From positions 1 through 23,825 of IMG/VR virus record IMGVR_UViG_3300049215_000818: 23,825 nt of DNA; one strand, 5' to 3'. The notes under the pieces were generated by a model. It did not search any database. It saw only the letters and a list, made by a program, of their open reading frames with translations, and was not told the origin of the DNA. Positions 1 through 23,303 of this stretch are shown in pieces. Source of the DNA: a virus. The position numbers were made by a program, and so were the translations under genes. Every line of letters begins with the position of its first letter. Position 1 is the stretch's first letter.

Positions 1-1167
1 CGACGGTATTGCGCCGACAGGGGGTGCGGGGGCTTTAAATTTAAAAAAACGACCAGGGGTGCGGCGTCCTGGTGTTTCCGTTTCCGAGATCCGACCACGA
101 GAAAACTCCAACGGTTCACGATCGGCACCTATCCAGACGTACCATTGGCCAAGGCAAGATCAATCGCGGACACACTACGGAAACAGGTGGCAGAAGGGCA
201 GAATCCCACGGTAAGCAAAAAACAAGGAAAGCATGACGCCGAGACCAGGACGTTCAATTCCCTGGCGATGCGTTATCTATCACGGCACCTGAAACGGAAT
301 GGGGAAAGGAAAAAGTCCCTTGTCCAAGATGAAGGCATCCTGAAACTCCACATTCTTCCGAAATGGGGCACTCGCAGATTCGATACCATCACCAGAAAGG
401 ACGTTATCGAACTCCTAGATTCGTTGGTGGATGCAGGGAAACCACGAATGGCCAATCGCGTCCATTCCTTGATTTCGGTCATTTTCTCATTTGCCTTGGA
501 TGAGGATCTGATTGGCGCTCATCCGTGTGCTCGACTGAGAAAGAGGGGAATGGAAAAGCCAGGGACACGGGTCTTGACCGACGCTGAGATGATCCGTTTG
601 TTCTGGCATGGAATCGTCCAACCACCCGTCACCCGCTCCATGGGTCTGGCTTTGCGATTATGTTTGATGACCGGCCTGCGCATTTCCGAGGCTGCCGGGA
701 TCTCAATGGCGGAAATCAATCAAGCTCAGGCGATGATCTCTATCCCAGGCAGCCGAATCAAAAACGGACGTGACCACCTTGTCCCCTTGGCACCCCTGGC
801 ATGGGAAATCGTCAGGGAAGCCTTGGGGACCCGACGCAACGGATATTTGTTTCCGTCCCCCGTAAATCTAGGCCCATACCGTTCAACGTCACTGTCGATT
901 GCCATGGGAAGGTTTACCCGATCTCTCAAGGGGAACACGGCCGCTGAGAAGTCATGGATTGCAGACCCCCCTTCCCCGCATGATCTCCGCCGTACTTTCC
1001 GAACACGTCTAGGTGCGCTGGGGGTCGGTAGCGAAGACCGGGACGCACTCACCAATCATGTCCGATCAGATGTCGGTTCCAGGCACTATGACAGGTATGA
1101 TCGCCTGCCAGAGAAACGGAAAGCCCTGGAAATCCTTTCGGCCCACATAGCCAAAATCGTCGAGTAA
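1..1167 (+). CDS. Tyrosine integrase, 5' end outside window
   Basis: This site-specific recombinase would integrate and excise the mobile element whose left end is seen here. The frame is open to position 1. Translated upstream of the first possible start (TTG at 145) it still reads as family sequence: a GGFKFK strand, a SWCFRFRD strand and FTIGTYPDVPLAKAR, the N-terminal arm-binding domain of P4-type integrases. The gene is therefore cut by the window edge and does not start at 145. In the visible 388 residues the catalytic set is complete: Arg227 (TGLRISE), His327 and Arg330 (HDLRR), His353 (NHV) and the nucleophile Tyr363 or Tyr366 (HYDRYDR). It reads into the element, as expected for an integrase next to an attachment site, so that site should lie shortly left of the window. 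Family assignment is secure; the target site is unknown. Confidence 0.93.
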   Translation, partial: RRYCADRGCGGFKFKKTTRGAASWCFRFRDPTTRKLQRFTIGTYPDVPLAKARSIADTLRKQVAEGQNPTVSKKQGKHDAETRTFNSLAMRYLSRHLKRNGERKKSLVQDEGILKLHILPKWGTRRFDTITRKDVIELLDSLVDAGKPRMANRVHSLISVIFSFALDEDLIGAHPCARLRKRGMEKPGTRVLTDAEMIRLFWHGIVQPPVTRSMGLALRLCLMTGLRISEAAGISMAEINQAQAMISIPGSRIKNGRDHLVPLAPLAWEIVREALGTRRNGYLFPSPVNLGPYRSTSLSIAMGRFTRSLKGNTAAEKSWIADPPSPHDLRRTFRTRLGALGVGSEDRDALTNHVRSDVGSRHYDRYDRLPEKRKALEILSAHIAKIVE

Positions 1168-1267: not shown

Positions 1268-1930
1268 ATGGCAAAATCACACCTGAAACTCGTGACACCA
1301 AAACCTGAAAATGGGAAAGTCATCCCACCGCAGCCCGAGAAAGCCCCCCGCAGCACCCCCAGCCGCCGCGCCAACGACCAACTTCGAGGCCGGGAACACC
1401 TAACCGAGAACGAAGTCAGCCGCCTGGAGAAGGCTGCCATAGGCCACAGCCGCTATGGTCACCGGGACGCCACCATGATCATGCTGGCGTTTAGGCACGG
1501 GCTACGGGTGTCGGAATTGTGCGATCTGCGATGGGACCAAGCGGATCTAGAAGGCGGCAAGCTCCATGTCCGTAGGCTCAAGAACTCGTCCCCGTCCACT
1601 CATGTCCTGGACGGAAAGGAAATTCGGGCATTGCGGCGACTCAAACGCGAACAGGACCCCCCATCGTCCTTTGTGTTCACAACCGAACGGAAGGGACCAT
1701 GCACCGCCGCTGGATTCCGAAAAACCCTGGCGAAACTGGGCGATTTGGCAGAGATAGGATTCCCAGTTCACCCCCATATGCTGCGACATGGGACCGGGTT
1801 CAAACTCGCAAATGACGGAATCGACACCCGCGCAATCCAGGACTATTTGGGGCACAAAAATATCAGCAATACAGTCCGGTATTCGCGTTTGAGCCCTGAG
1901 AGATTCAAGGCTTTTCGGTGGAAGGATTGA
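1268..1930 (+). CDS. Short tyrosine recombinase (FimB/XerD-like)
   Basis: A second tyrosine recombinase of 220 aa, with almost no N-terminal arm-binding domain, so it is closer to FimB/FimE-size invertases than to the integrase before it. Catalytic residues are all present: Arg80 (HGLRVSEL), Lys105 in the beta-hairpin, His170 and Arg173 (HMLR), His196 (LGH) and Tyr205 (VRYSRL). The first 45 residues are low-complexity and proline-rich. The ATG at 1268 has a GGAAGG ribosome site at 1252-1257. It follows the integrase by 100 bp on the same strand. It may invert a segment, resolve multimers, or assist excision; the sequence does not say which. Chemistry is confident, role is not. Confidence 0.9.
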   Translation: MAKSHLKLVTPKPENGKVIPPQPEKAPRSTPSRRANDQLRGREHLTENEVSRLEKAAIGHSRYGHRDATMIMLAFRHGLRVSELCDLRWDQADLEGGKLHVRRLKNSSPSTHVLDGKEIRALRRLKREQDPPSSFVFTTERKGPCTAAGFRKTLAKLGDLAEIGFPVHPHMLRHGTGFKLANDGIDTRAIQDYLGHKNISNTVRYSRLSPERFKAFRWKD

Positions 1931-1950: not shown

Positions 1951-1985
1951 GGGGATGGCAGATAAACTTGGGCATCCCCTTTTTT
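1951..1985 (+). terminator. Rho-independent terminator after recombinase 2
   Basis: The arms GGGGATG (1951-1957) and CATCCCC (1973-1979) pair perfectly across a 15-nt loop and are followed at once by six T. It lies 20 bp past the recombinase stop. The ATG inside the left arm (1955) is also a possible start of the next gene, so either the terminator or that start may be fortuitous. Confidence 0.55.
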
Positions 1986-3029
1986 CATTTGTAAATATCT
2001 TCATGCCCAGTTCCCCAGCACTTTCCGTCGCCCAAATCACCAATCGATCACCCACCACCATCAACTATGCCGATTATTTCTCTGGGGTGGCTCCGCAGCA
2101 GAATTTCACCACCGACCAGATATCTTCGACGGGAGTTTCCAATCTCTCATTTCCGTCCGATTTGCCGATCTACTACATTACATTGAAATATGGCGACCTG
2201 GACCGCACAAACATCAACCAACCCCTGGTCAAAAACACCATCGGGCAAATCGTCCTTCCCCTGCCCCAAAACCTACTCGACTCCCAGCATGTCATATTCG
2301 AGGCGCAACCAGTCGGGCTTGGTGGGGCTATAGCGGCACAAGCGGCAACTGGGGGTGGACTGTCTGGGGCACTCTCCTCGTCCCTGACTGCCGCCACCGC
2401 CCAGGCAGCCCAAAACGCCCTGAAAACGATCAACACGATATCCAGTCTATCCCAGGGAACTCTTGCGGGGCTGGGTCTGACGTTGAACCAGTGGCTGATC
2501 CAAATCCTGAAATCCCCAGATTACAAGTCCTGGGAAATGACATGGCGACTGTCCCCCAAGAACGAAACCGAGGCCGCCACACTCAATCAGATAATCAGGG
2601 TTCTCAATGATGGCGCCGCTCCACAACTTCCATCTGGTGGCGCGAGCTTGTATTCAGGATTCTTCGGTTTCCCTTGTGTGTGGGACGTAGCGATACAGTA
2701 TGCCCTGGGTCAATTCAACAGTAGCCCGACAAATGGTTGCACTCAGAACTGGTTGGGGACTCTCTTTCCCATGAAAACGTCAATCATAGATCAGATAAGC
2801 GTGAATTACTCCCCCGCAGGACTCCCTTCCTTCAACGCCCCTAAGAACTCCATGCCACCATCCCCCATCAATTGTCGATATCACCATCCGCTTTACCTGT
2901 TTGAGTTTCTACACCCGGGGGGATTTTGGGTCTGGTATGGGAATCACGGGAAATCTCATTGCGTATCAGAACTTCATAAACTCCATCCAAACCAACTTCA
3001 ACAATGGCGGGGTGGGGAACTTGTTCTGA
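1955..3029 (+). pseudogene. T4-like baseplate tail-tube cap (gp48/gp54), frameshifted
   Basis: This resembles the T4 gp48/gp54 family, which caps or starts the tail tube on a myovirus baseplate. Family-like stretches are the IVLPLPQNL segment, then SWEMTWRLSPKNETEAATLN with a following helix, then FPMKTSIIDQISVNYSPAGLPSF. The expected last strands (IVDITIRFTCLSFYTRGDFG) are found only in the +1 frame. Taking one C out of the five-C run at 2862-2866 restores them and gives a stop at 3027-3029, for about 342 aa, the usual length. As sequenced, the frame runs on into the next gene and ends at 3535 (526 aa). ATG 1955 has GGGAG upstream; ATG 2003 is the alternative and has no clear ribosome site. 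Family call from memory; the frameshift may be real or a read error. Confidence 0.55.
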
Positions 3030-3535
3030 TGGGCTTCACGGTGGAAGATTGCAGGAAAATCTCGATCCAGACCCTATGGCGCGAGCAAATATTCCGATTG
3101 GGGCATTCAGTTGGGATAGTCCACGGGGTAAAATTCACAACGGTCACGTCTCCCCATGGTTCCTATATTCACATCAACGGCAAATCCTGGAAACTAGACA
3201 TCGAGATCCTGAAAAGAAGCCAGAAATCCCCCACTTCAAAGGGACGGGAAATAGAAGGTTTCCGCTGGTATGTCCTAGATGGGAACGGCAAACGACATAC
3301 CGATTTGCTCTTGACTCCGGATGGGCAAGTCGGCTGTCGATCAGAGCTTGGAATTGGTTACAGGTCCCAGAGAGAAATACCCAGGAAAAGGGACGTGCGG
3401 AGAAAACAGAAAATCATGAAGCGTTTGATGGCGACTGGAACTATCGGAGAACCGCCACCAAGGAAACCGGGAATGCACAGGAAGACCTACCAAAAGCTTA
3501 ATGGCGATCTACAAACCAGGGCAACGAGCAACTGA
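3029..3535 (+). CDS. Zinc-ribbon-type phage/plasmid protein with lost cysteines
   Basis: A 169-aa protein whose ATG (3029-3031) overlaps the repaired stop of the previous gene (TGATG). It resembles a hypothetical family common on alphaproteobacterial plasmids and phages: N-terminal VEDCRKISIQTL, central W-[YF]-x-C-P-x-C-G-R-R, then F-x-C-R-x-C-x-x-L-x-Y-x-S-Q, and a C-terminal KPKGMHWRTY-like end. Here the same layout is clear (FRWYVL, CRSELGIGYRSQRE, a basic RKRDVRRKQK helix, then KPGMHRKTYQKL). Only one of the four metal-binding cysteines remains, so zinc binding is probably lost. Function unknown; nucleic-acid binding is a guess from the basic C-terminal part. Family recalled from memory. 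Confidence 0.6.
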   Translation: MGFTVEDCRKISIQTLWREQIFRLGHSVGIVHGVKFTTVTSPHGSYIHINGKSWKLDIEILKRSQKSPTSKGREIEGFRWYVLDGNGKRHTDLLLTPDGQVGCRSELGIGYRSQREIPRKRDVRRKQKIMKRLMATGTIGEPPPRKPGMHRKTYQKLNGDLQTRATSN

Positions 3536-3968
3536 TCCCCTTGACCCTGATGTTTTCACAAATGGATATCGCGTCAATGTGGAGAAACCGGCAGGGCGAC
3601 AAAGCCATCACCTTGACCTTCAACAGGAACTCCAGAACTTCATCTCGAATATCGTCAGGGCATACAATGGACGCTTTGAGATTTTGAGCTTTGCCAAGGT
3701 GGGATTTGTTTGTTCAGTTTCCGTTCCAAGTGCAAATTACATGCTGTTGAGTCCAGACGCCGTTGATGCCCTGGTCCAGGATCTTCGATTCCAATTGCGG
3801 AAGAATTATCCCGAAGTTGACATGACTGAGATAACCAGGATGTGCTCGGGGGAGACGCCTGTTGATAGATATGCCACGTCCTATTTGCGGGTCCTTTTCT
3901 CAAGAGTGACCGGGCTGGGCAACGATCAATTTCGAGACCCCCCGCGAGATATCAAACCACAGACATAA
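3501..3968 (+). CDS. Hypothetical protein, 155 aa
   Basis: I do not recognise this protein. The ATG at 3501 overlaps the last 35 bp of the previous gene, and the gene ends 10 bp before the scaffold-like gene, so it sits in a tight plus-strand operon. The middle looks like a mixed alpha/beta domain: a predicted helix (LQQELQNFISNIVRAY), a beta-rich stretch (FEILSFAKVGFVCSVSV) and a helical end (DAVDALVQDLRFQLRKNY). No signal peptide, membrane segment or known catalytic motif is visible. No strong ribosome site precedes it, in keeping with translational coupling. Position between tail and head genes suggests a phage morphogenesis role, but that is context only. Confidence 0.6.
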   Translation: MAIYKPGQRATDPLDPDVFTNGYRVNVEKPAGRQSHHLDLQQELQNFISNIVRAYNGRFEILSFAKVGFVCSVSVPSANYMLLSPDAVDALVQDLRFQLRKNYPEVDMTEITRMCSGETPVDRYATSYLRVLFSRVTGLGNDQFRDPPRDIKPQT

Positions 3969-3978
3969 AGGAAAGAAA

Positions 3979-4605
3979 ATGACTGAAAAGATCCCACTGT
4001 TTGACGATGATGACCTGACGGAGGAGGCAAAGGAAAAGCTGGAGACGATGTTCTCAAATGCCGTGGATGTGAGAGTACAGCAGACTTTGCGCGAGGAGTT
4101 CGAGATGATTGTAGACAACCTAACCTATCTCGAAGGTAGACACGACGGGTTGGCGAAAGATGTAAGCAGTCTAGAATCGCGGATGGAACTCATGGCTGAA
4201 TGGGCGGAGGAGGAAATCGGGAACACCCTGGCTGCCAGATTGGAGAAACTCAAGGGATATCACGAGCAGCTAAGGCAAGCCATGTTTTCCCTGGCTGATG
4301 AACTCAATCCAGAAGCCAGAGAGCGGTTTTATCAAAAGGTCGGAAAGCTGGCGCGGGATTCTTCCACGTCAAGATATTCTGGTGATAATTGGGATGGTGG
4401 TATCGAGCCCAAACAGGCGGCGGCAAACCGAGAGTCCATAAAGGCATCCGCACATTTCGAGACTGGTAAACCGCAATTCGCGGCGGGCTTGAAGAAATCG
4501 AATCTTGATCTGAAGGAGGGGCTGTCAACTGAAACCAAGGTCGATCGGTATGCGCAAGCCCTGAGTGAACTTGTGCGAAAGGCGAGGGCTAATCCGCTTT
4601 CGTAA
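3979..4605 (+). CDS. T4 gp22-like prohead core scaffold
   Basis: In T4-type phages gp22 forms the inner core on which the prohead shell assembles and is later proteolysed. This 208-aa acidic, helical protein opens with DDLTEEAKEKLETMFSNAV followed by DVRV, which closely follows the conserved start of cyanophage-type gp22 proteins (an L-T-E-E-F-K-E-K-x-x-x-I-F-E-A-A-V-N-x-R-V pattern). A long coiled-coil-like region (about residues 30-115) comes next. The C-terminal end (VDRYAQALSELVRK) matches the R-Y-x-x-A-[LI]-S-R-type tail of that family. AGGAAAG lies just before ATG 3979. No prohead protease or T4-type capsid gene is in view. Judged from motif memory; a generic coiled-coil protein is the alternative. 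Confidence 0.55.
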   Translation: MTEKIPLFDDDDLTEEAKEKLETMFSNAVDVRVQQTLREEFEMIVDNLTYLEGRHDGLAKDVSSLESRMELMAEWAEEEIGNTLAARLEKLKGYHEQLRQAMFSLADELNPEARERFYQKVGKLARDSSTSRYSGDNWDGGIEPKQAAANRESIKASAHFETGKPQFAAGLKKSNLDLKEGLSTETKVDRYAQALSELVRKARANPLS

Positions 4606-4654
4606 AGTGTCATGGGAACGAGGAAGGTATAAAACACTTCGACACTCGTTCTCA

Positions 4655-4726
4655 GGTGAATGGGGAGATGGCTTTTTGTTTCTCATTTTCTCGGGTGTAT
4701 CCTATCCGTGCCATCTCCCTTTCACC
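4655..4726 (+). repeat. Long inverted repeat in 188-bp gap
   Basis: The arms 4655-4672 and 4710-4726 are complementary over 17 bp with one bulge and one mismatch, around a 37-nt T-rich loop. No T-tract follows, so it is not a standard terminator. A second short inverted repeat (GAACGAG near 4616 and CTCGTTC near 4645) lies just before it. The gap separates the scaffold-like gene from the DUF6433-like gene, so an RNA-level or operator role for the downstream gene is possible. Confidence 0.55.
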
Positions 4727-4793
4727 ACCCTTGCCCCGAGTATATGTGGATGTAACAGAACCGGGGCATTTCAGAAACAAAGAAGGAGATTGA

Positions 4794-5387
4794 ATGAGAA
4801 GTGACAAAATCCCCAAAACCAGACCCGCTACAATGTCCCAGTTGTTTGCATGGGTGGCAGGTCTAAAGCAGGAAGAAGATCAGGTTGAACTCCTCCGAAG
4901 GAACTGGCACCCATCCGTGGCCGTCCTGTTGCGGTCGATCCTGGACCCGAAGGTGACATGGCTTGTTTCGGAACCATTTGACTATGAACCATGCACCTGG
5001 AAGGAGTCAGAGAGTAACGCATATTTCGAATTCCGCCGGCTGTACCTATTTCAGGATGGTGGTGAGAGACCAAATCCAATCGCCCTGCAGCCCTTCAAAA
5101 TGCGGAAATTGTTTGGTGACTTGCTTTCGAGTTTGCCCCAGGATGATTGTCATCTATTGATCGACGCCACAAGGAAAGAACTCCCATTGGGCATATCGGC
5201 GGAACTGATCGTGAAGGCTTATCCTGAATTGCTGGTGACTGATCAACGGGAGGAAGTAAGGCGGAACTTACGGAAATTGACGGAGACTGCCCAGGCCATG
5301 AAATCAGTGGAATCGTCCCAGACATTCCGGAAGGCGCGTATGGAGGCCGAGGCTGTATTGGCGCAGTTGGAAAGGATCGGACGGTGA
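4794..5387 (+). CDS. DUF6433-like T4-type phage protein
   Basis: A 197-aa protein resembling DUF6433, a family of unknown function common in T4-like cyanophages and relatives. Matching features in order: an N-terminal helix pair ending in a run like VELLRRNWHPSVAVLLR; the LDPKVTWLVSE segment (family: F-D-P-x-I-x-F-x-L-P); a Y-x-P stretch; the FRRLYLFQDGG segment; KLFGDLLSSLPQDDCHLLID (family: F-x-x-L-L-E-x-x-P-D-D-A-x-L-L); and LPLGISAELIVKAYPELL (family: K-G-[IV]-T-x-x-x-[IV]-x-x-A-F-P-x-L). AAGGAG lies 6 bp before ATG 4794. It is the third T4-like gene here. Function unknown; identification from memory of the family pattern. Confidence 0.55.
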   Translation: MRSDKIPKTRPATMSQLFAWVAGLKQEEDQVELLRRNWHPSVAVLLRSILDPKVTWLVSEPFDYEPCTWKESESNAYFEFRRLYLFQDGGERPNPIALQPFKMRKLFGDLLSSLPQDDCHLLIDATRKELPLGISAELIVKAYPELLVTDQREEVRRNLRKLTETAQAMKSVESSQTFRKARMEAEAVLAQLERIGR

Positions 5388-5656
5388 CACGAGAACAGGC
5401 CAAGCGGGTTCTGAGGAACATCAAGTCAATCATCCGGCAAAAGTACTTTGGAGAAGATCTTGTGCCGGCAAATCACACGGGCATGGCGGTTTCATCTGAT
5501 CTACCCGTTCCCCTGGATCCCGCCGTGGAGAAGAGACGGAAAAGGAAAGTCGCTCGAAAGCAGGAAGTCGAGCCCGTTGCCGAGTGTGATGGGGTCTGGG
5601 ACATCGACCTTGTTACCCTGATCCAGTTATCTTCGATCTCCCCGACAATCCATTGA
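5384..5656 (+). CDS. Small basic hypothetical protein
   Basis: This 90-aa frame starts with GTG overlapping the stop of the DUF6433-like gene (GTGA), the usual sign of translational coupling. The N-terminal half is helical and basic (REQAKRVLRNIKSIIRQKYF); a lysine/arginine cluster (EKRRKRKVARKQE) follows at about residues 49-61. I do not recognise a family. It is the last gene of the plus-strand run and converges on the DUF3800 gene. The overlap supports a real gene, although composition alone would not. Confidence 0.5.
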   Translation: MTREQAKRVLRNIKSIIRQKYFGEDLVPANHTGMAVSSDLPVPLDPAVEKRRKRKVARKQEVEPVAECDGVWDIDLVTLIQLSSISPTIH

Positions 5657-5712: not shown

Positions 5713-6474
5713 TCAAAGGGATCGTCCCGACAAAATTGCTACGCTTTTGATCGTTTGGTCAGCAATCCTACTCAATTCTTTGCGGTCGATGTGAACGACT
5801 GTGTGGAAATGCTGCAATAGGCTTTCGCAATCCTTCCTGCGTGGACGCCCCTCAAGCTCATGTCGCCGATCTGTGTACCACTGCCAGGCAAGCAAGTCGG
5901 CGGCCTGGACCTGGGGACTTTTCTGCTTTTCCACGAATCGGTGCCCGGCATATCGTAAGTATCGCTTGTCCTCGGGCTGACTGACCATGGCTTCCATAAT
6001 TTTGTCCGCCTTGGTCGCACTCTTGTGTCCGGCTTCGAAAAAATATGTCATAGCCGCTATCATTGGGTTTCTGGATATGAATTCCGCAACCCCGGTCATA
6101 ATTACTTGTGCGCAAAAACCATAGGCGTCCTTTTCATACCAGTTTTCATCCATGGGAAGTCGAGGAAAGAAATCGGCATACTCGTCAGGATCGACAGTTA
6201 TGGCCAAGCCCTGCATGGAATGACGTTTGATAAGATCTATCAGCTTTGTCTGTACCGCAATTCTCTCCGATTTGGTCAGATTGGAGAACGGGCCATTACC
6301 ATGGGCGCAGTCTACCATATGGAAATAAGGCAATTTCTTCCAACGCAACACCCTGCGCCATTCGTGTCCGAGCTTGATCGCCTGACTCTTGCGAAAAATG
6401 TATCCGGCCAAACAAAAAATATGCGATCCATCGTGTGACCCGCTTTCGTCGAAGAAGGCTTGCGCCTGAATCAT
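5713..6474 (-). CDS. DUF3800 domain protein
   Basis: The protein starts with an FFDESG strand (residues 7-12 from ATG 6474), the signature acidic motif of DUF3800, and ends with the family's second conserved block QVQAADLLAW (Q-x-A-D-L-x-A). DUF3800 proteins are thought to have an RNase H-like fold and often travel on phages, islands and in defence loci, but no substrate is established. The ATG at 6474 puts the DESG motif near the N-terminus as usual and has GGTGG seven bases upstream. A GTG at 6534 would add 20 residues and lies seven bases after a TAATAA box, so a leaderless start there is possible. It stands alone in a long gap and is probably transcribed separately. Confidence 0.82.
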   Translation of the reverse strand: MIQAQAFFDESGSHDGSHIFCLAGYIFRKSQAIKLGHEWRRVLRWKKLPYFHMVDCAHGNGPFSNLTKSERIAVQTKLIDLIKRHSMQGLAITVDPDEYADFFPRLPMDENWYEKDAYGFCAQVIMTGVAEFISRNPMIAAMTYFFEAGHKSATKADKIMEAMVSQPEDKRYLRYAGHRFVEKQKSPQVQAADLLAWQWYTDRRHELEGRPRRKDCESLLQHFHTVVHIDRKELSRIADQTIKSVAILSGRSL

Positions 6475-6534
6475 GGCATATCCACCGTCTGGAACACGGT
6501 AGTAGCTGATCAAACAATCCTTGTCGATCTCCAC

Positions 6535-7001: not shown

Positions 7002-7628
7002 TCATCCCTTCCTCGCCCTCCTCGATCCCTTCAGGTTGATCTCTGGGCAAACAAACCGGAACGTGGCTGCCTGATTGTGATAGGCCCTGAACTCTCTGGC
7101 CAATTCTGTATTCGCAAGTTTTGATCCAATGCGGCCGTCCTCACTGGGCTTGATCTGAATCTCGTCGATCTGGAGTGAGTTGGTTTCCAGAAAGTCCCTG
7201 ACGATGGACTCGAAGGTTTTTGGAAAGTGGTCCATATGCCCGTCCCCTGGTTTCAATCTCTTCCCGGTGACTGCACATGGAATGAGGCCGTCATCATCTT
7301 TCAGAAATGATCGCTGTAGCATGATATCGCCCCTCACCACCCAGCGGAGTGCGTCCGACAAGTTGGTCCTGGGTGATGCTGGGGGGTTGAGACATTTCAG
7401 GTAGGAAAAGTCAGTCTCGCTACCGTCCACCCTGACAATCCAGAATCCGGGATACTTCCAGAGTTGACGGACCTCGAAGTGATCTATGCCCGCCCCGACC
7501 TTTTCCAGATAACGTGGATGCCCCTTGAGAAGTTCGGCAAGCGCATCAACGTCAATCGGGTCTGAGACTTCGCTTCCCGGCTTGTACTTGTAGAGAATTG
7601 ACTGGAATTTGGAACGCCTATCCGACAA
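7002..7628 (-). CDS. DUF3223 (DCL-like) domain protein
   Basis: A 208-aa protein with the DUF3223 core: HPRYLEKVGAGIDHF (residues 37-51) followed by FWIVRVDGSETDFSYLKC (62-79). This domain also occurs in plant DCL proteins. After it come CAVTGKRL and HMDHFPKTFESIV (118-143), a Cys/His arrangement often seen after this domain and faintly like an HNH motif; nuclease activity is not established. The start is TTG 7628, which overlaps the stop of the upstream gene (7618-7620) and has GGAG about 11 bp before it, so the two are co-translated. It is last in a four-gene minus-strand operon headed by the replication initiator. Confidence 0.72.
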   Translation of the reverse strand: MSDRRSKFQSILYKYKPGSEVSDPIDVDALAELLKGHPRYLEKVGAGIDHFEVRQLWKYPGFWIVRVDGSETDFSYLKCLNPPASPRTNLSDALRWVVRGDIMLQRSFLKDDDGLIPCAVTGKRLKPGDGHMDHFPKTFESIVRDFLETNSLQIDEIQIKPSEDGRIGSKLANTELAREFRAYHNQAATFRFVCPEINLKGSRRARKG

Positions 7629-8596: not shown

Positions 8597-9718
8597 TTAT
8601 CTGTTGATCATTTCCCGGTATAGCTCACTCATATAATCGTCTGTGACATCTGTGTTGTTGTCCTCGACGGGGTTTCCTACCTCGTCGATCGTGACTCCAA
8701 CCAATTGCATTCTCCAGGTTCCTTCCTGTAGCCATCGCAAGGGATTCTTGAGATATTTGTTATCCCCGACCTTCTGACGATACCTATTAGCCGCAAACAA
8801 GATCGCGGCTGGGTCAGTCCCTTCCGATATCAGCTTGGAGAGTTCCCTGCGAATGGCGATCTCGTTCCAAGAATGGCGATAGTGGGAAAGGTAGACCTGG
8901 TGGAATTGGTGGAAGAAGGAATCCAGGGTGGGGGGCGGCACACCAGCAACGTCAGGTTTGTACGGGACCACATGTCGCGAACCAACTGAACTTGTGTTCG
9001 GGGCCGGTGGGATTCCTGGAGAACTGAAAAGGCGACCAGATGGATGACTGTGGAATGAGTCTCCAGCGGGAAGGTGATCAGATGGATGACTGTGGAATGA
9101 GTCTCCAGCGGGAAGGTGATCAGATGGATGACTGTGGAATGAGTCTCCAGAGTTCAGTTGGATGCAGTGTCGCTCCGGGTCAGAAACTTCGCCTTGGTGG
9201 TTCACACTCTCACTCCCCGGGGTCTGTTCTACTCTCCGGGTTCTTATATACGGATTCTTATATACGGTATTGCCCGGTGTATGGACCGGGGTCAACCCGG
9301 TGTGCAGACCGGGGTCAAATGTATCTCCACGCCGGGGTGATGATGGCGCACAGACCGGGGTCAAATGGACATGCACACCGGGGTCCATCCCGGCCTGCAC
9401 ACCGGGGTCAGAGTCCGCCGGCAATCTAATTCGATACGTGTTACTCCTGTTCCTATTCCCAGGCCCACGTTGTCTGAACAATTCCAGATATCCACATTTC
9501 TCCAGGAGCTCCCGTGCTCGTTCAACACTCCTCACGTTGGCCTTCAGGTCTCCCGCCAGGGTTTCCACCGATGGCCATGCACTTTGCTTTTCACTGTTGA
9601 GATAGTGGCACACAATCCTGGTGAGGAGCGCGAATGGTAATTTTCCGGTAATTCGTTCGTCAATCGAGATTCTATCCAGGACCTTGAACTTGAAGCTGGC
9701 AAATTGCTTGCTGTCCAT
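8597..9718 (-). CDS. Winged-helix replication initiator (lambda O-like)
   Basis: The N-terminal 95 residues form a helix-turn-helix domain typical of phage and plasmid initiators (SAWPSVETLAGDLKANVRSV followed by ERARELLEKCGYLEL). The C-terminal 90 residues (FFHQFHQVYLSHYRHSWNE to YLKNPLRWLQEGTWRM) resemble the DnaD/replisome-organiser tail that contacts the helicase loader. A long linker joins them, rich in PGV/TPV motifs and holding a perfect 14-residue tandem repeat (GDSFHSHPSDHLPA). This is the plan of lambda O and similar proteins, whose genes contain their own origin, and the linker DNA here has that look. ATG 9718 is preferred over ATG 9733 because GGGA lies 11 bases upstream of it. 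It heads an operon with the 189-aa gene. Confidence 0.75.
   Translation of the reverse strand: MDSKQFASFKFKVLDRISIDERITGKLPFALLTRIVCHYLNSEKQSAWPSVETLAGDLKANVRSVERARELLEKCGYLELFRQRGPGNRNRSNTYRIRLPADSDPGVQAGMDPGVHVHLTPVCAPSSPRRGDTFDPGLHTGLTPVHTPGNTVYKNPYIRTRRVEQTPGSESVNHQGEVSDPERHCIQLNSGDSFHSHPSDHLPAGDSFHSHPSDHLPAGDSFHSHPSGRLFSSPGIPPAPNTSSVGSRHVVPYKPDVAGVPPPTLDSFFHQFHQVYLSHYRHSWNEIAIRRELSKLISEGTDPAAILFAANRYRQKVGDNKYLKNPLRWLQEGTWRMQLVGVTIDEVGNPVEDNNTDVTDDYMSELYREMINR
9037..9150. repeat. 42-bp perfect tandem repeat, 2.7 copies
   Basis: Units run 9037-9078, 9079-9120 and 9121-9150 (partial) with no mismatches. The unit is a multiple of three and inserts 14 residues per copy into the initiator linker, so it is tolerated in frame. 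Perfect identity points to recent slippage or duplication, and copy number probably varies between relatives. Confidence 0.95.
9241..9409. other. Candidate replication origin: iterons plus AT-rich repeats
   Basis: ACCGGGGTC occurs at 9285, 9308, 9354, 9377 and 9401, with a two-mismatch copy (GCCGGGGTG) at 9331. Spacing is 23, 23, 23, 23 and 24 bp. A partly conserved TGCAC or TGCAG precedes most copies. Beside them at 9241-9254 and 9255-9268 lies a tandem AT-rich 14-mer, TTCTTATATACGG plus one variable base. Neither 23 nor 14 is a multiple of three, so the repeats are read in different codon frames and the conservation is in the DNA, not the protein. Iterons next to an AT-rich unwinding element inside the initiator gene is the layout of the phage lambda origin. 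Confidence 0.7.
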
Positions 9719-9812
9719 TCTCGTTATTCCCATCCTTTTTCAATAAATAATCGTGACACTAGACTTCTATCCTATCTGGGTTTGGTGTCTTGTTGTTCGC
9801 TTGGTTCGACAA

Positions 9813-9848
9813 GGCGGCATTCCCATCATCGGGGTGCCGCCTTTTTTT
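9813..9848 (+). terminator. Terminator hairpin with seven T
   Basis: GGCGGCA (9813-9819) pairs with TGCCGCC (9835-9841), with an inner CCC/GGGG pairing, followed by seven T at 9842-9848. It is read on the plus strand, although no plus-strand gene precedes it closely. It would stop transcription running from the left into the RHH gene. On the minus strand the hairpin directly follows the RHH stop but lacks a good T-tract. Confidence 0.65.
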
Positions 9849-10379: not shown

Positions 10380-11498
10380 CTATCTGGAATTCCGAAACTC
10401 CTCGATTCTCTGTGATGCTCGTCTGGCAACTTTCCGGTCAATTTCAAACCCCACCCATTTCCTTCCCAGTTTTTCCGCCGCAACCAATGTCGTGCCACCC
10501 CCACAGAAGAAATCGACCACCGTCCCGCCTTTTCCAGTCAGATGCTTGATGAAATATTCTGCATCGCTCTGGGCTTTCCCGTAAGGGTGCCACTTCTTCT
10601 CGGCTTTCCTGCTAACAACGGCGGAATCAATCAACTTCTGAGGATCCCCACGGTGCCCCTTGACGTACCATAGCATGGGCAGGTGTTTGCAGACGACACC
10701 ATGTTTCCTCAGTATGGCATATCGTCCGGTTTCGAAGACCGTGGCGAGTGTCATGAAATACTGGAGGTGGGTTCCCATCATCTTGATCACATCGGGCAAT
10801 ATGACATGACCGACGTAGAACACCAGACTTCCCCCATCGACCAGGATTCGAGCTGATTCCTTCTCCAGGTCCAAAATTGATTGGAGTGATTCCATGTTAT
10901 AGAGCGGATCTGTCATGACCAAGGGGACGGAATTGGGGCGAATTATCTGGGGTGACAATTCCCGAAAATCCCCGACATGGATATGAGAATCGACCCTGAT
11001 CCCGTTCCCCCCGTACAAAGTTTCTTGCTTTTCCCTTCTCCGATGCTCACGTTCCCCACTCTTGTCTGCGTAAAGGATTTTGCTGATCACTGGCTCGACA
11101 ACTTTCTTCTGGAACTCCCCATCTGGCATTCTCCACCAATTTTGCCAGACGGATGAATTGTTTCGGCTGATTCCCAGATGCTTGAGCGTTTTCGATAATG
11201 TACTTTCATCGGACGTTTTTCGGGGGCGACCTCTCCTTGCCAGTGCACCCAGTCGCTTCAACCTGATAATCACTCCCCCGAACTCCCGTCTCATCCACGT
11301 CCTGGCTTTTGCGATTTCTACCAGTCGAGATGTATCCCCGAGACTTTTGGCGTACTTTTCCAATCGCGCAAGTTCGCTTTCAAATTCAACATGGAAATCT
11401 TTCAGGTCATCCAAATTCGTTATCCTGGAAATTTCCCGATGGAGAGAGTTCAGGGACGGGATGTTGTTCTGGGGAGATATGGCAGGCAGGGTTTCCAC
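10380..11498 (-). CDS. Orphan N4/N6 DNA methyltransferase, altered motif IV
   Basis: A 372-aa protein. The first 150 residues are helical with a GRPRK patch and a segment (LGISRNNSSVWQNWWRMPD) found before the catalytic domain in phage methyltransferases. The catalytic domain has motif IV at 196-200 and motif I (DFFCGGGTT, 329-337) after it, followed by KWVGFEID. That order is the beta class, which methylates adenine N6 or cytosine N4 using S-adenosylmethionine. Motif IV reads TDPLY, where the family has DPPY, so the second proline, next to the base-flipping aromatic residue, is replaced. Activity may be reduced or retained. No restriction enzyme is adjacent, so it is an orphan, usually used for self-protection. 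Confidence 0.82.
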   Translation of the reverse strand: METLPAISPQNNIPSLNSLHREISRITNLDDLKDFHVEFESELARLEKYAKSLGDTSRLVEIAKARTWMRREFGGVIIRLKRLGALARRGRPRKTSDESTLSKTLKHLGISRNNSSVWQNWWRMPDGEFQKKVVEPVISKILYADKSGEREHRRREKQETLYGGNGIRVDSHIHVGDFRELSPQIIRPNSVPLVMTDPLYNMESLQSILDLEKESARILVDGGSLVFYVGHVILPDVIKMMGTHLQYFMTLATVFETGRYAILRKHGVVCKHLPMLWYVKGHRGDPQKLIDSAVVSRKAEKKWHPYGKAQSDAEYFIKHLTGKGGTVVDFFCGGGTTLVAAEKLGRKWVGFEIDRKVARRASQRIEEFRNSR

Positions 11499-11658: not shown

Positions 11659-11853
11659 ATGGACAACAATTCTGAAAACAAACTGGCCTACTCAATCAAG
11701 GAAGTGATGGAACTCACCGGGCTGGGACGTTCCACGATTTACAGGGCCATCGACCATGGACAACTGAAAGTCAGGAAATGCGGGCGACGGACACTTGTTC
11801 TCGCCACGGATCTCAACACGTTCCTGGACGGTTTGGAGTGTTCCAGCCCATAA
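11659..11853 (+). CDS. AlpA-like excisionase / MerR-type HTH
   Basis: A 64-aa protein with one winged helix-turn-helix: YSIKEVMELTGLGRSTIYRAI followed by VRKCGRRTLVLATDLNTFL. This is the size and pattern of AlpA/Xis-type excisionase-family proteins that bend attachment-site DNA and steer integrases toward excision. It is the last gene of the element, 60 bp before the broken capsid gene, where an excisionase would be found if the right attachment site is at about 11,860-11,940. No clear ribosome site precedes ATG 11659. It could also regulate transcription. Family confident, role inferred. Confidence 0.8.
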   Translation: MDNNSENKLAYSIKEVMELTGLGRSTIYRAIDHGQLKVRKCGRRTLVLATDLNTFLDGLECSSP

Positions 11854-11945
11854 TCCGTGTCCCCATCGTGTCCCGGACCCCGAGTCTTGTCCGCGCATGA
11901 CACAGTCAAGTCTATGAATAGGCTTCGATTTCCAGTTTTTGTGAG
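11854..11945. other. Right junction of element, candidate attachment site
   Basis: Gene content, strand and base composition all change here. CGTGTCCC is repeated at 11856-11863 and 11867-11874, 11 bp apart, like recombinase or excisionase arm sites. Capsid-family sequence on the minus strand is recognisable down to about 11,940 and then becomes unrelated residues ending in a stop at 11912-11914. The other attachment copy would be outside the window, so no core can be defined. A misassembly could give the same picture. Confidence 0.5.
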
Positions 11946-12280
11946 ATCTGACGGTTCATGACCTTGACCGTCGTCATCTGCATGATGCGGCGGCCGTCGC
12001 CTTGAGACCCGAAGATGTTGAACTCGGTGCGCTGGGGCTTGTCGTGCCACTCGACCAGGGTGGCGGGGACCTGGTTGAGGGAATCGACGCGGGACGGGAT
12101 CATGCCGTTCACGCCGCGCGTGACGGCCATGGCACCGCCCGATCCGGCGACCAGGAACATCGCCTGGTTGCCCTTGATCACCGCCTCGGTGGTCGCAACG
12201 GTCCGCAGCCAGGACTGGCCCTGCTCGAACGCCGCGACGAATTCCTGGCGGTACTGGATCATGAATGCCGTATCGGCCAT
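11912..12280 (-). pseudogene. Podovirus-type major capsid protein, C-terminus lost
   Basis: The 122-aa product begins like the major capsid proteins of Bradyrhizobium podovirus-type prophages: ADTAFMIQYRQEFVAAFEQG, TTEAVIKGNQA, AVTRGVNGMIP, EWHD, then a QMTTVKVMNRQ block. Family members are about 300 aa or longer, and this copy stops just after NRQISQ with eight unrelated residues. AAGGA lies before ATG 12280. The position, downstream of the scaffold gene, is right for a capsid gene. The rest of the gene would be left of the element, outside the window. Without it this prophage cannot build heads while the element is present. Confidence 0.72.
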
Positions 12281-22934: not shown

Positions 22935-22988
22935 AATACACTCTCAGCTTGTTGCGTTTTTGCCGTTCAGGAGGTATTGTGTGCAATC

Positions 22989-23303
22989 ATGATGCAGCGC
23001 CAACGAGCAAGGACCTACATCCGCGAGTGGCGCCGCCACCGCGGACTGACGCTCCAGCAGCTCGCAGGCCGTCTGGAGATGACAGCAAGTCATCTGTCGA
23101 TGCTTGAGCGCGGCAAGAGAGGCTACACCCAGGACATGCTCGAGGCGCTGGCCGAGGCGCTGGGGACCGATCCCGCTTCCCTGTTGATGCGGGATCCAAA
23201 TGACCCGGATGCCATATGGTCTATCTGGGACCAGGCGAAGCCGGGTGAGCGCCGGCAAATCGTTGAGGTTGCGCACGCTTTGCTTCGGAGCGGCACCAAG
23301 TAG
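22989..23303 (+). CDS. XRE-family transcriptional repressor
   Basis: A 104-aa protein with a Cro/CI-type helix-turn-helix: YIREWRRHRGLTLQQLAGRLE then TASHLSMLERGKRGYTQDML and EALAEALGTDPASLL. A helical tail (PGERRQIVEVAHALLRSG) of the kind that makes dimers follows. AGGAGGT (22969-22975) is 13 bases before ATG 22989; a TTG at 22977 is too close to it. A repressor of this kind would keep the prophage genes silent and regulate itself from the TGAAAA sites upstream. It could also be an unlinked host regulator. Confidence 0.82.
   Translation: MMQRQRARTYIREWRRHRGLTLQQLAGRLEMTASHLSMLERGKRGYTQDMLEALAEALGTDPASLLMRDPNDPDAIWSIWDQAKPGERRQIVEVAHALLRSGTK

What the first reader, a model, noticed from the sequence alone, without database searches (positions are those of the whole stretch)
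1955..5387. T4-type myovirus genes inside an integrated element
A tail-tube cap, a gp22-like core scaffold and a DUF6433-like protein are families of strictly lytic T4-like phages. Here they travel with integrases, an excisionase and a lambda-like origin. Either a temperate T4-like lineage exists or a satellite has taken selected T4-like head and tail genes, for example to steer assembly of a helper.
Basis: partly seen in the sequence, partly recalled or inferred. Interest (0 to 1): 0.75.

Follow-up and report, generated by a model that had tools for sequence, protein, structure and literature searches.

The report
Mobile element carrying selected T4-phage genes
One half of this contig is a piece of an integrating mobile element that carries a few genes of the normally lytic T4 phage family, perhaps to steer the assembly of such a phage; the other half belongs to an unrelated phage and is joined to it at a sharp, possibly artificial, seam.

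Summary
The T4-type genes are real. The product at 1955 is a T4-type tail-tube cap (PHROG_230, E 1e-19). The product at 4794 is a DUF6433 protein (PHROG_461, E 3e-12). The product at 3979 is weaker: it keeps the most conserved block of gp22 and a fitting C-terminal motif, but is short and lacks most of the profile. The window is not one element: at 11,945 it switches, inside a capsid gene, to an unrelated 65% GC podovirus whose 98.8%-identical relative reads straight through. A chimera is likely, and integration is not shown. The left 11.9 kb is uniform in composition and holds a P4-type integrase, a FimB-like recombinase, an AlpA-type excisionase and an iteron-bearing O-like initiator. Three T4-type genes that lie 6-125 kb apart in complete T4-type phages stand here within 3.4 kb, with no other recognised T4-type gene. 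Of 50 T4-type relatives, 0 carry an integrase. I favour a satellite-like element that borrowed T4-type assembly genes (0.42) over a temperate T4-type phage (0.25). By-product: DUF6433 models as the DNA-binding domain of DNA ligase and follows RNase H in 76 of 80 loci.

The parts
1..1167 (+). P4-type tyrosine integrase, N-terminus cut by the contig end
   Evidence: PHROG_1 E 1.2e-50; PRK09692 E 2.4e-16 over profile 36-386 of 413; open frame from base 1
1268..1930 (+). FimB/FimE-like small tyrosine recombinase
   Evidence: Pfam Phage_integrase 8.7e-38; PRK09870 3.3e-39; relatives up to 63% in many phyla
1955..3029 (+). T4-type baseplate tail-tube cap (gp48-like), one frameshift near 2,850-2,880
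   Evidence: PHROG_230 1e-19; cap profile 2.4e-18; phiM12 gp48 9e-8; frame analysis
3029..3535 (+). ORF of 168 aa, unknown; its ATG overlaps the cap's TGA
   Evidence: no PHROG, Pfam, NCBIfam or PADLOC match; best tblastn in phages E 0.8
3501..3968 (+). ORF of 155 aa, unknown
   Evidence: no match; single-sequence model pLDDT 37.5, unusable
3979..4605 (+). compact gp22-like (prohead core scaffold) protein, 208 aa
   Evidence: hhalign 43% over 37 columns; 0 of 10,000 and 0 of 9,989 shuffles; C-terminal motif VDRYAQALSE
4794..5387 (+). DUF6433 protein with ~50-aa C-terminal extension; ligase DNA-binding-domain fold
   Evidence: PHROG_461 3.4e-12; alignment A2; model pLDDT 81.5; T4 ligase domain 5wfy Z 12.2
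5384..5656 (+). small ORF overlapping DUF6433, unknown
   Evidence: no significant PHROG match
5713..6534 (-). DUF3800 protein
   Evidence: Pfam 1.2e-9
7002..7628 (-). DUF3223 protein, resembles PADLOC's HamC2 models
   Evidence: Pfam 5.1e-19; PADLOC 1.8e-37
8597..9733 (-). O-like replication initiator with HTH_36
   Evidence: PHROG_270/391 about 3e-10; Pfam HTH_36 2.3e-8
9265..9410 (.). six iteron-like repeats, 23-24 bp apart, inside the initiator gene (probable origin)
   Evidence: family D1
10380..11498 (-). DNA methyltransferase
   Evidence: Pfam N6_N4_Mtase 1e-16
11659..11853 (+). AlpA-type excisionase
   Evidence: TIGR01764 1.1e-8; HTH_17 8.4e-11 and Phage_AlpA 7.4e-5
11945..11950 (.). 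seam between the two genomes (shared GATCTG), inside the capsid gene of the right-hand phage
   Evidence: L096 and L097 both stop matching exactly here
11945..12280 (-). first 40% or so of a podovirus major capsid gene, cut at the seam (not part of the T4-gene element)
   Evidence: PHROG_3437 1e-20 over profile 6-117 of 294; intact in L096

Best explanation
Window 1 to about 11,945 is most of an integrating mobile element that is not itself a T4-type phage but has taken over a small set of T4-type genes; I think it is a satellite of a T4-type phage. Its P4-type integrase and AlpA-type excisionase would let it sit in, and leave, the host chromosome, and its O-like initiator with iterons would replicate it. 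When a T4-type helper infects, the compact gp22-like scaffold would enter the helper's prohead core and the extra gp48-like cap would enter the helper's tail start, altering head size or blocking full helper virions; the DUF6433 protein, a stand-alone ligase-type DNA-binding domain, would act on the helper's replicating or nicked DNA. Shown: gene identities, their clustering, compositional unity of the left piece, the composite contig. Inferred: integration, satellite status, helper dependence, every assembly step.
For: (1) T4-type identities. (2) gp48, gp22 and DUF6433 lie at least 6.2 kb and mostly 26-125 kb apart in Cr30, DLP6 and S-PM2 (gp48 and gp22 also in phiM12; linear record coordinates) but within 3.4 kb here, with no other T4-type gene recognised among the left-hand proteins searched. 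(3) Among 80 DUF6433 loci, RNase H lies just upstream in 76 and a cap or gp22 in 0; 0 of 50 such records have an integrase. (4) The scaffold-like protein (208 aa; 231 stop to stop) is shorter than all 81 gp22 ORFs compared (282-472 aa stop to stop), yet keeps their single most conserved 20-column block and a fitting C-terminal motif. (5) The integrase matches the P4-type model from profile position 36, so the contig begins just inside it; the AlpA-type gene ends 92 bp before the seam: about 12 kb, satellite-sized. (6) The T4-gene segment and the replication segments share GC (0.508-0.509) and tetranucleotide usage (r 0.42-0.49, against 0.10-0.23 of the T4-gene segment with four other T4-type phages).
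Against: Only one contig; no relative of the element was found in 8 viral and 2 genome scans, though most used narrow patterns. Both ends are missing, so size and integration are unproven. No packaging gene, capsid-size gene of known type or helper repressor was recognised. The cap has a frameshift, which may mean decay or a sequencing error. The gp22 match covers only about 37 residues plus a short motif, and gp22's second most conserved block was not found in it. The contig has one seam at 11,945, so a second hidden seam is possible. The integrase segment is less like the rest (r 0.23-0.39).
Confidence: 0.42

Rival explanations
1. A temperate phage with a T4-type virion: the window shows a rearranged corner of a far larger genome that also has gp23, gp20 and the rest.
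For: T4-type genes share composition with the integrase and replication genes; gp48 and gp22 are virion genes; the cap starts 24 bp after the recombinase gene, as in one operon.
Against: 0 of 50 DUF6433-bearing records have an integrase; 0 of 385 alpha- and 0 of 369 gammaproteobacterial genomes have a PHROG_230 cap (a sample only); the gene order is unlike the T4-type references seen here; the scaffold is shortened; an O-like initiator with iterons is not T4-type replication.
Confidence: 0.25
2. A second assembly seam inside the left piece joins a T4-type phage fragment to an unrelated mobile element.
For: The contig has one sharp seam already, beginning at a GATCTG shared by both sides.
Against: GC of 0.509, 0.509 and 0.508 in three successive segments; tetranucleotide correlations highest within the left piece; uniform GC3 of 0.52-0.64; overlapping or mostly closely spaced genes from the small recombinase to 5656.
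Confidence: 0.13
3. A decaying genomic island or prophage remnant that keeps T4-type genes picked up by chance.
For: Frameshift in the cap gene; genes of mixed origin; FimB-like recombinase of a family spread over many phyla.
Against: The other left-hand genes are open; one shift could be a sequencing error; tight gene packing.
Confidence: 0.12
4. The left element is truly inserted in the capsid gene of the right-hand podovirus or prophage (seam not an artefact). This concerns the seam and could be true together with any of the other readings.
For: The element has an integrase and an excisionase; the seam is exact against two relatives.
Against: The insertion would destroy an essential gene; only 6 bases are shared at the seam; two relatives are uninterrupted; the other edge is not in the window.
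Confidence: 0.08

Closest known systems
P4-type satellites and AlpA-bearing islands (recalled)
   Same: P4-type integrase, AlpA-type excisionase, own replication initiator, about 12 kb
   Different: no P4-type primase, Sid or Psu was recognised; assembly genes here are T4-type
Satellites that remodel the helper capsid, such as SaPI with CpmB and PLE (recalled); PICMIs (PMC10803314, passages read) are satellites of virulent phages without capsid remodelling
   Same: small scaffold-like protein that keeps conserved parts of the helper-type scaffold; a virulent helper is plausible
   Different: T4-type parts, a tail cap and a ligase-type DNA-binding protein; helper unknown; nothing tested at the bench
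T4-superfamily phages of Alpha- and Gammaproteobacteria (phiM12, Cr30, DLP6)
   Same: the gp48 and DUF6433 proteins are nearest to theirs; gp22 motif shared
   Different: those are 156-195 kb phages with these genes in separate places; DLP6's paper (PMC5349666, passages read) reports a transposase, and the word integrase does not occur in its main text

Membership tests
T4-type tail-tube cap (gp48, PHROG_230) | sequence profile match over most of the protein | tested here: met
   E 1e-19; own profile 7-262 of 290
T4-type tail-tube cap (gp48, PHROG_230) | intact open frame | tested here: not met
   frame changes near 2,850-2,880; sequencing error not excluded
T4-type tail-tube cap (gp48, PHROG_230) | gp53, gp2 or gp4 as neighbours | tested here: not met
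   neighbours are a recombinase and an unknown ORF; compare
T4-type prohead core scaffold (gp22, PHROG_237) | the most conserved block of the family | tested here: met
T4-type prohead core scaffold (gp22, PHROG_237) | conserved C-terminal motif at the C-terminus | tested here: met
   21 of 20,000 shuffles of the last 30 residues as good; 0 of 2,000 other ORF ends; motif chosen after inspection
T4-type prohead core scaffold (gp22, PHROG_237) | full-length profile match | tested here: not met
   about 36 of 308-364 profile positions matched
DUF6433 (PF20025, PHROG_461) | profile match | tested here: met
   PHROG_461 3.4e-12; profile of three phage members 3e-19; Pfam 28.0 bits, under its 38.9-bit cut-off
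DUF6433 (PF20025, PHROG_461) | RNase H gene just upstream | tested here: not met
   76 of 80 relatives have it; no RNase H profile hit in the window
phage satellite | integrase, excisionase and own replication genes | tested here: met
phage satellite | no complete virion gene set | tested here: inconclusive
   none in 11.9 kb, but both ends are missing
phage satellite | mobilised by a helper phage | not testable with these tools
   needs host and helper
temperate T4-type phage | gp23, gp20, gp17 and sheath genes with an integrase in one genome | tested here: inconclusive
   none in the left piece; fragment only

The most novel reading that the evidence does not exclude
A class of satellites that parasitises T4-type phages by carrying a stripped-down copy of the helper's own core scaffold, its tail-tube cap and a nick-binding ligase-like domain, so that helper heads, tails and DNA are diverted at three points.
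Probability: 0.33. Interest if true: 0.85.

Novelty: new variant of a known kind. Interest (0 to 1): 0.52.

Why it matters
T4-type phages are among the most abundant lytic phages (recalled), and I recall no satellite or temperate relative described for them; the paper searches run here listed none (an open-access library only). A satellite using pieces of T4's own scaffold and tail start would make the question of how T4 sets head size and starts its tail testable with natural variants. If it is instead a temperate T4-type phage, the rule that this superfamily is strictly lytic falls.

Tried and rejected
Single-protein scans of viral contigs with the cap, the 155-aa ORF, the methyltransferase and the DUF6433 protein gave no relatives. 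The integrase scan gave four distant integrases (26-29%), and none of the T4-type genes was found near them. The DUF6433 scan of genome contigs matched patterns but no relative; the second scan went to the small recombinase, whose relatives span many phyla and do not name a host, and their flanks held no other left-hand gene except distant integrases. The O-like initiator had no match in 369 gammaproteobacterial genomes at E 1e-8, and the DUF6433 profile none in 385 alphaproteobacterial genomes; neither search had a positive control. The hhalign of DUF6433 against alignment A2 was circular, because A2 contains the window protein; I do not use it. The structure of the 155-aa ORF was unusable. 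T4-type late promoter words (TATAAATA, recalled) are absent from the left piece; tRNA and Rfam searches were empty. The idea that DUF6433 is a structural protein was dropped.
Full report
What was checked. The window is a whole IMG/VR virus record of 23,825 bases. The three T4-type calls were tested with profiles, tblastn, profile-profile comparison, shuffles and relatives.

Tail cap. The ORF from 1955 hits PHROG_230 (baseplate tail tube cap) at E 1e-19 over residues 54-302, and a profile built from the caps of S-PM2, DLP6 and phiM12 without the window at E 2.4e-18. Tblastn finds eight phage records, seven of them Sinorhizobium T4-type phages at 25.7% identity, E 9e-8. Pfam's T4_tail_cap model is below its cut-off (14.4 against 20.2 bits). 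A profile made with the window protein included reaches the solved T4 gp48 chain 5iv5_U at E 4e-5. The reading frame changes near 2,850-2,880: frame 1 matches the cap profile to position 262, and the second frame continues at 264 and ends at 3027-3029, where the ATG of the next ORF overlaps the stop. The second piece is short and its score alone is weak (190 of 5,000 shuffles as good).

gp22. The ORF at 3979-4605 (208 aa) gives only E 0.055 to PHROG_237; as a whole-record search it is E 2.6e-4 at 14 bits, and the same family rang in 2 of 14 control genomes at the lax threshold. Tblastn in phages finds nothing. A four-member gp22 alignment aligns to it with 43% identity over 37 columns, hhalign E 1e-4 and probability 58. 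With that profile 0 of 10,000 shuffles reach its score; with an 81-member profile 0 of 9,989 scored shuffles do, and it is the best ORF outside the four gp22 references among 10,708. The matched block is the most conserved 20 columns of gp22. The C-terminus carries VDRYAQALSE, which fits the gp22 C-terminal motif: 98 of 20,000 full shuffles, 21 of 20,000 shuffles of the last 30 residues, and 0 of 2,000 other ORF ends score as well. The motif was chosen after looking at the gp22 ends, 79 of 81 of which fit the anchor, so these numbers are somewhat optimistic. The second most conserved gp22 block was not seen, and the protein is shorter than all 81 gp22 ORFs compared (282-472 aa stop to stop; the window's ORF is 231 stop to stop). 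I call it gp22-like, not gp22.

DUF6433. The 197-aa product at 4794 matches PHROG_461 at 3.4e-12 and Pfam DUF6433 at 28.0 bits, under the 38.9-bit cut-off. Its best phage relatives are DLP6 and Cr30 (36% identity to Cr30 in the alignment). A scan of viral contigs found 154 relatives, of which 80 were returned. In 76 of 80 the T4-type RNase H gene lies just upstream; a cap or gp22 was found in 0 of 80 loci, many of which are short. So it belongs to the replication neighbourhood. A 39-row model (pLDDT 81.5) resembles the DNA-binding domain of T4 DNA ligase: Foldseek's best six rows are all DNA ligases (best E 0.016), and VIA-align gives Z 12.2 over 129 residues, rmsd 3.3, with further phage, bacterial, human and archaeal ligases following. 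The tool warns that helical models can give high Z by chance, but here one family fills the top six rows. Pfam also gave a weak DNA_ligase_A_N hit (E 0.018), over a different part of the protein. No paper in the library mentions DUF6433.

The contig is composite. GC rises from about 0.51 to 0.65 near 12 kb. The right half is a podovirus: terminase, portal, and a capsid gene of which only profile positions 6-117 of 294 are present. A viral scan with the portal found 12 loci, among them L096 (99% in protein) and L097 (84%). L096 matches the window at 98.8% over 6,048 bases and stops at 11,945; L097 stops at the same base. L096 runs on through an intact capsid gene, and L097 has the same sequence as L096 beyond the break over the 60 bases shown, save one. 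The shared stretch begins GATCTG, with one mismatch at the seventh base. A join at a GATC is what ligation or microhomology joining would give, but it is one case. I think a chimera is likelier than an insertion into an essential gene; reads would decide.

The left piece. Apart from the three T4-type genes it has a P4-type integrase open from the first base, a FimB-like recombinase, DUF3800 and DUF3223 proteins, an O-like initiator with six repeats 23-24 bp apart inside its gene, a DNA methyltransferase and an AlpA-type excisionase. GC3 is 0.52-0.64 in all 13 left-hand genes measured, against 0.74-0.87 in three right-hand genes. Tetranucleotide usage of the T4-gene segment agrees best with the neighbouring left segments (0.39, 0.49, 0.45), less with the right half (0.21-0.28) and with four T4-type phages (0.10-0.23). 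So the T4-type genes look at home in this element. Of 50 DUF6433 records chosen from the 80, 0 have a Pfam integrase, and no PHROG_230 cap was found in 9, 385 and 369 bacterial genomes; none of the 14 control genomes rang either, but the same search rang in all four T4-type phages.

Reading. In complete T4-type genomes the three genes are far apart (linear record coordinates): S-PM2 gp22 at 78 kb, DUF6433 at 141 kb, gp48 at 148 kb; DLP6 at 15, 78 and 140 kb; Cr30 at 87, 154 and 127 kb. Here they sit within 3.4 kb with two unknown ORFs and no other recognised T4-type gene. A small integrating element with chosen T4-type genes is the simplest account, and a satellite that steers a T4-type helper is the mechanism I think most likely. 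PICMIs show that satellites of virulent phages exist, and the same paper says that many satellites encode capsid remodelling (PMC10803314, passages read); the roles of particular satellite scaffolds are recalled. That this element is mobilised by, or interferes with, a T4-type phage is inference. A temperate T4-type phage remains possible.

Limits. One contig, both element ends missing, no close relative found, host unknown, and one frameshift.

Noticed in passing
window 4794-5387 and loci L016-L095: DUF6433, a family without known function, models as the DNA-binding domain of DNA ligase (Z 12.2) and follows RNase H in 76 of 80 loci, which suggests a role in lagging-strand or nick processing in T4-type phages.
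   Followed up: partly
window 11945: Sharp seam between a 51% GC element and a 65% GC podovirus inside its capsid gene; two relatives read through.
   Followed up: yes
window 9029-9154: Three near-identical 42-bp repeats inside the initiator gene, near the 23-bp iterons.
   Followed up: no
window 7002-7628: DUF3223 protein resembling PADLOC's HamC2 models (1.8e-37) standing without a recognised partner gene.
   Followed up: no
window 1268-1930 and loci L108-L185: Small FimB-like recombinase whose relatives (38-63% identity) occur in proteobacterial, cyanobacterial and other genomes, a family that may itself travel widely.
   Followed up: no
window 9811-9843: Strong terminator-like hairpin (13 pairs, then a T run) upstream of the initiator gene.
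   Followed up: no
window 22977-23303: Cro/CI-type HTH protein at the far end of the right-hand podovirus segment, hinting that this phage may be temperate.
   Followed up: no
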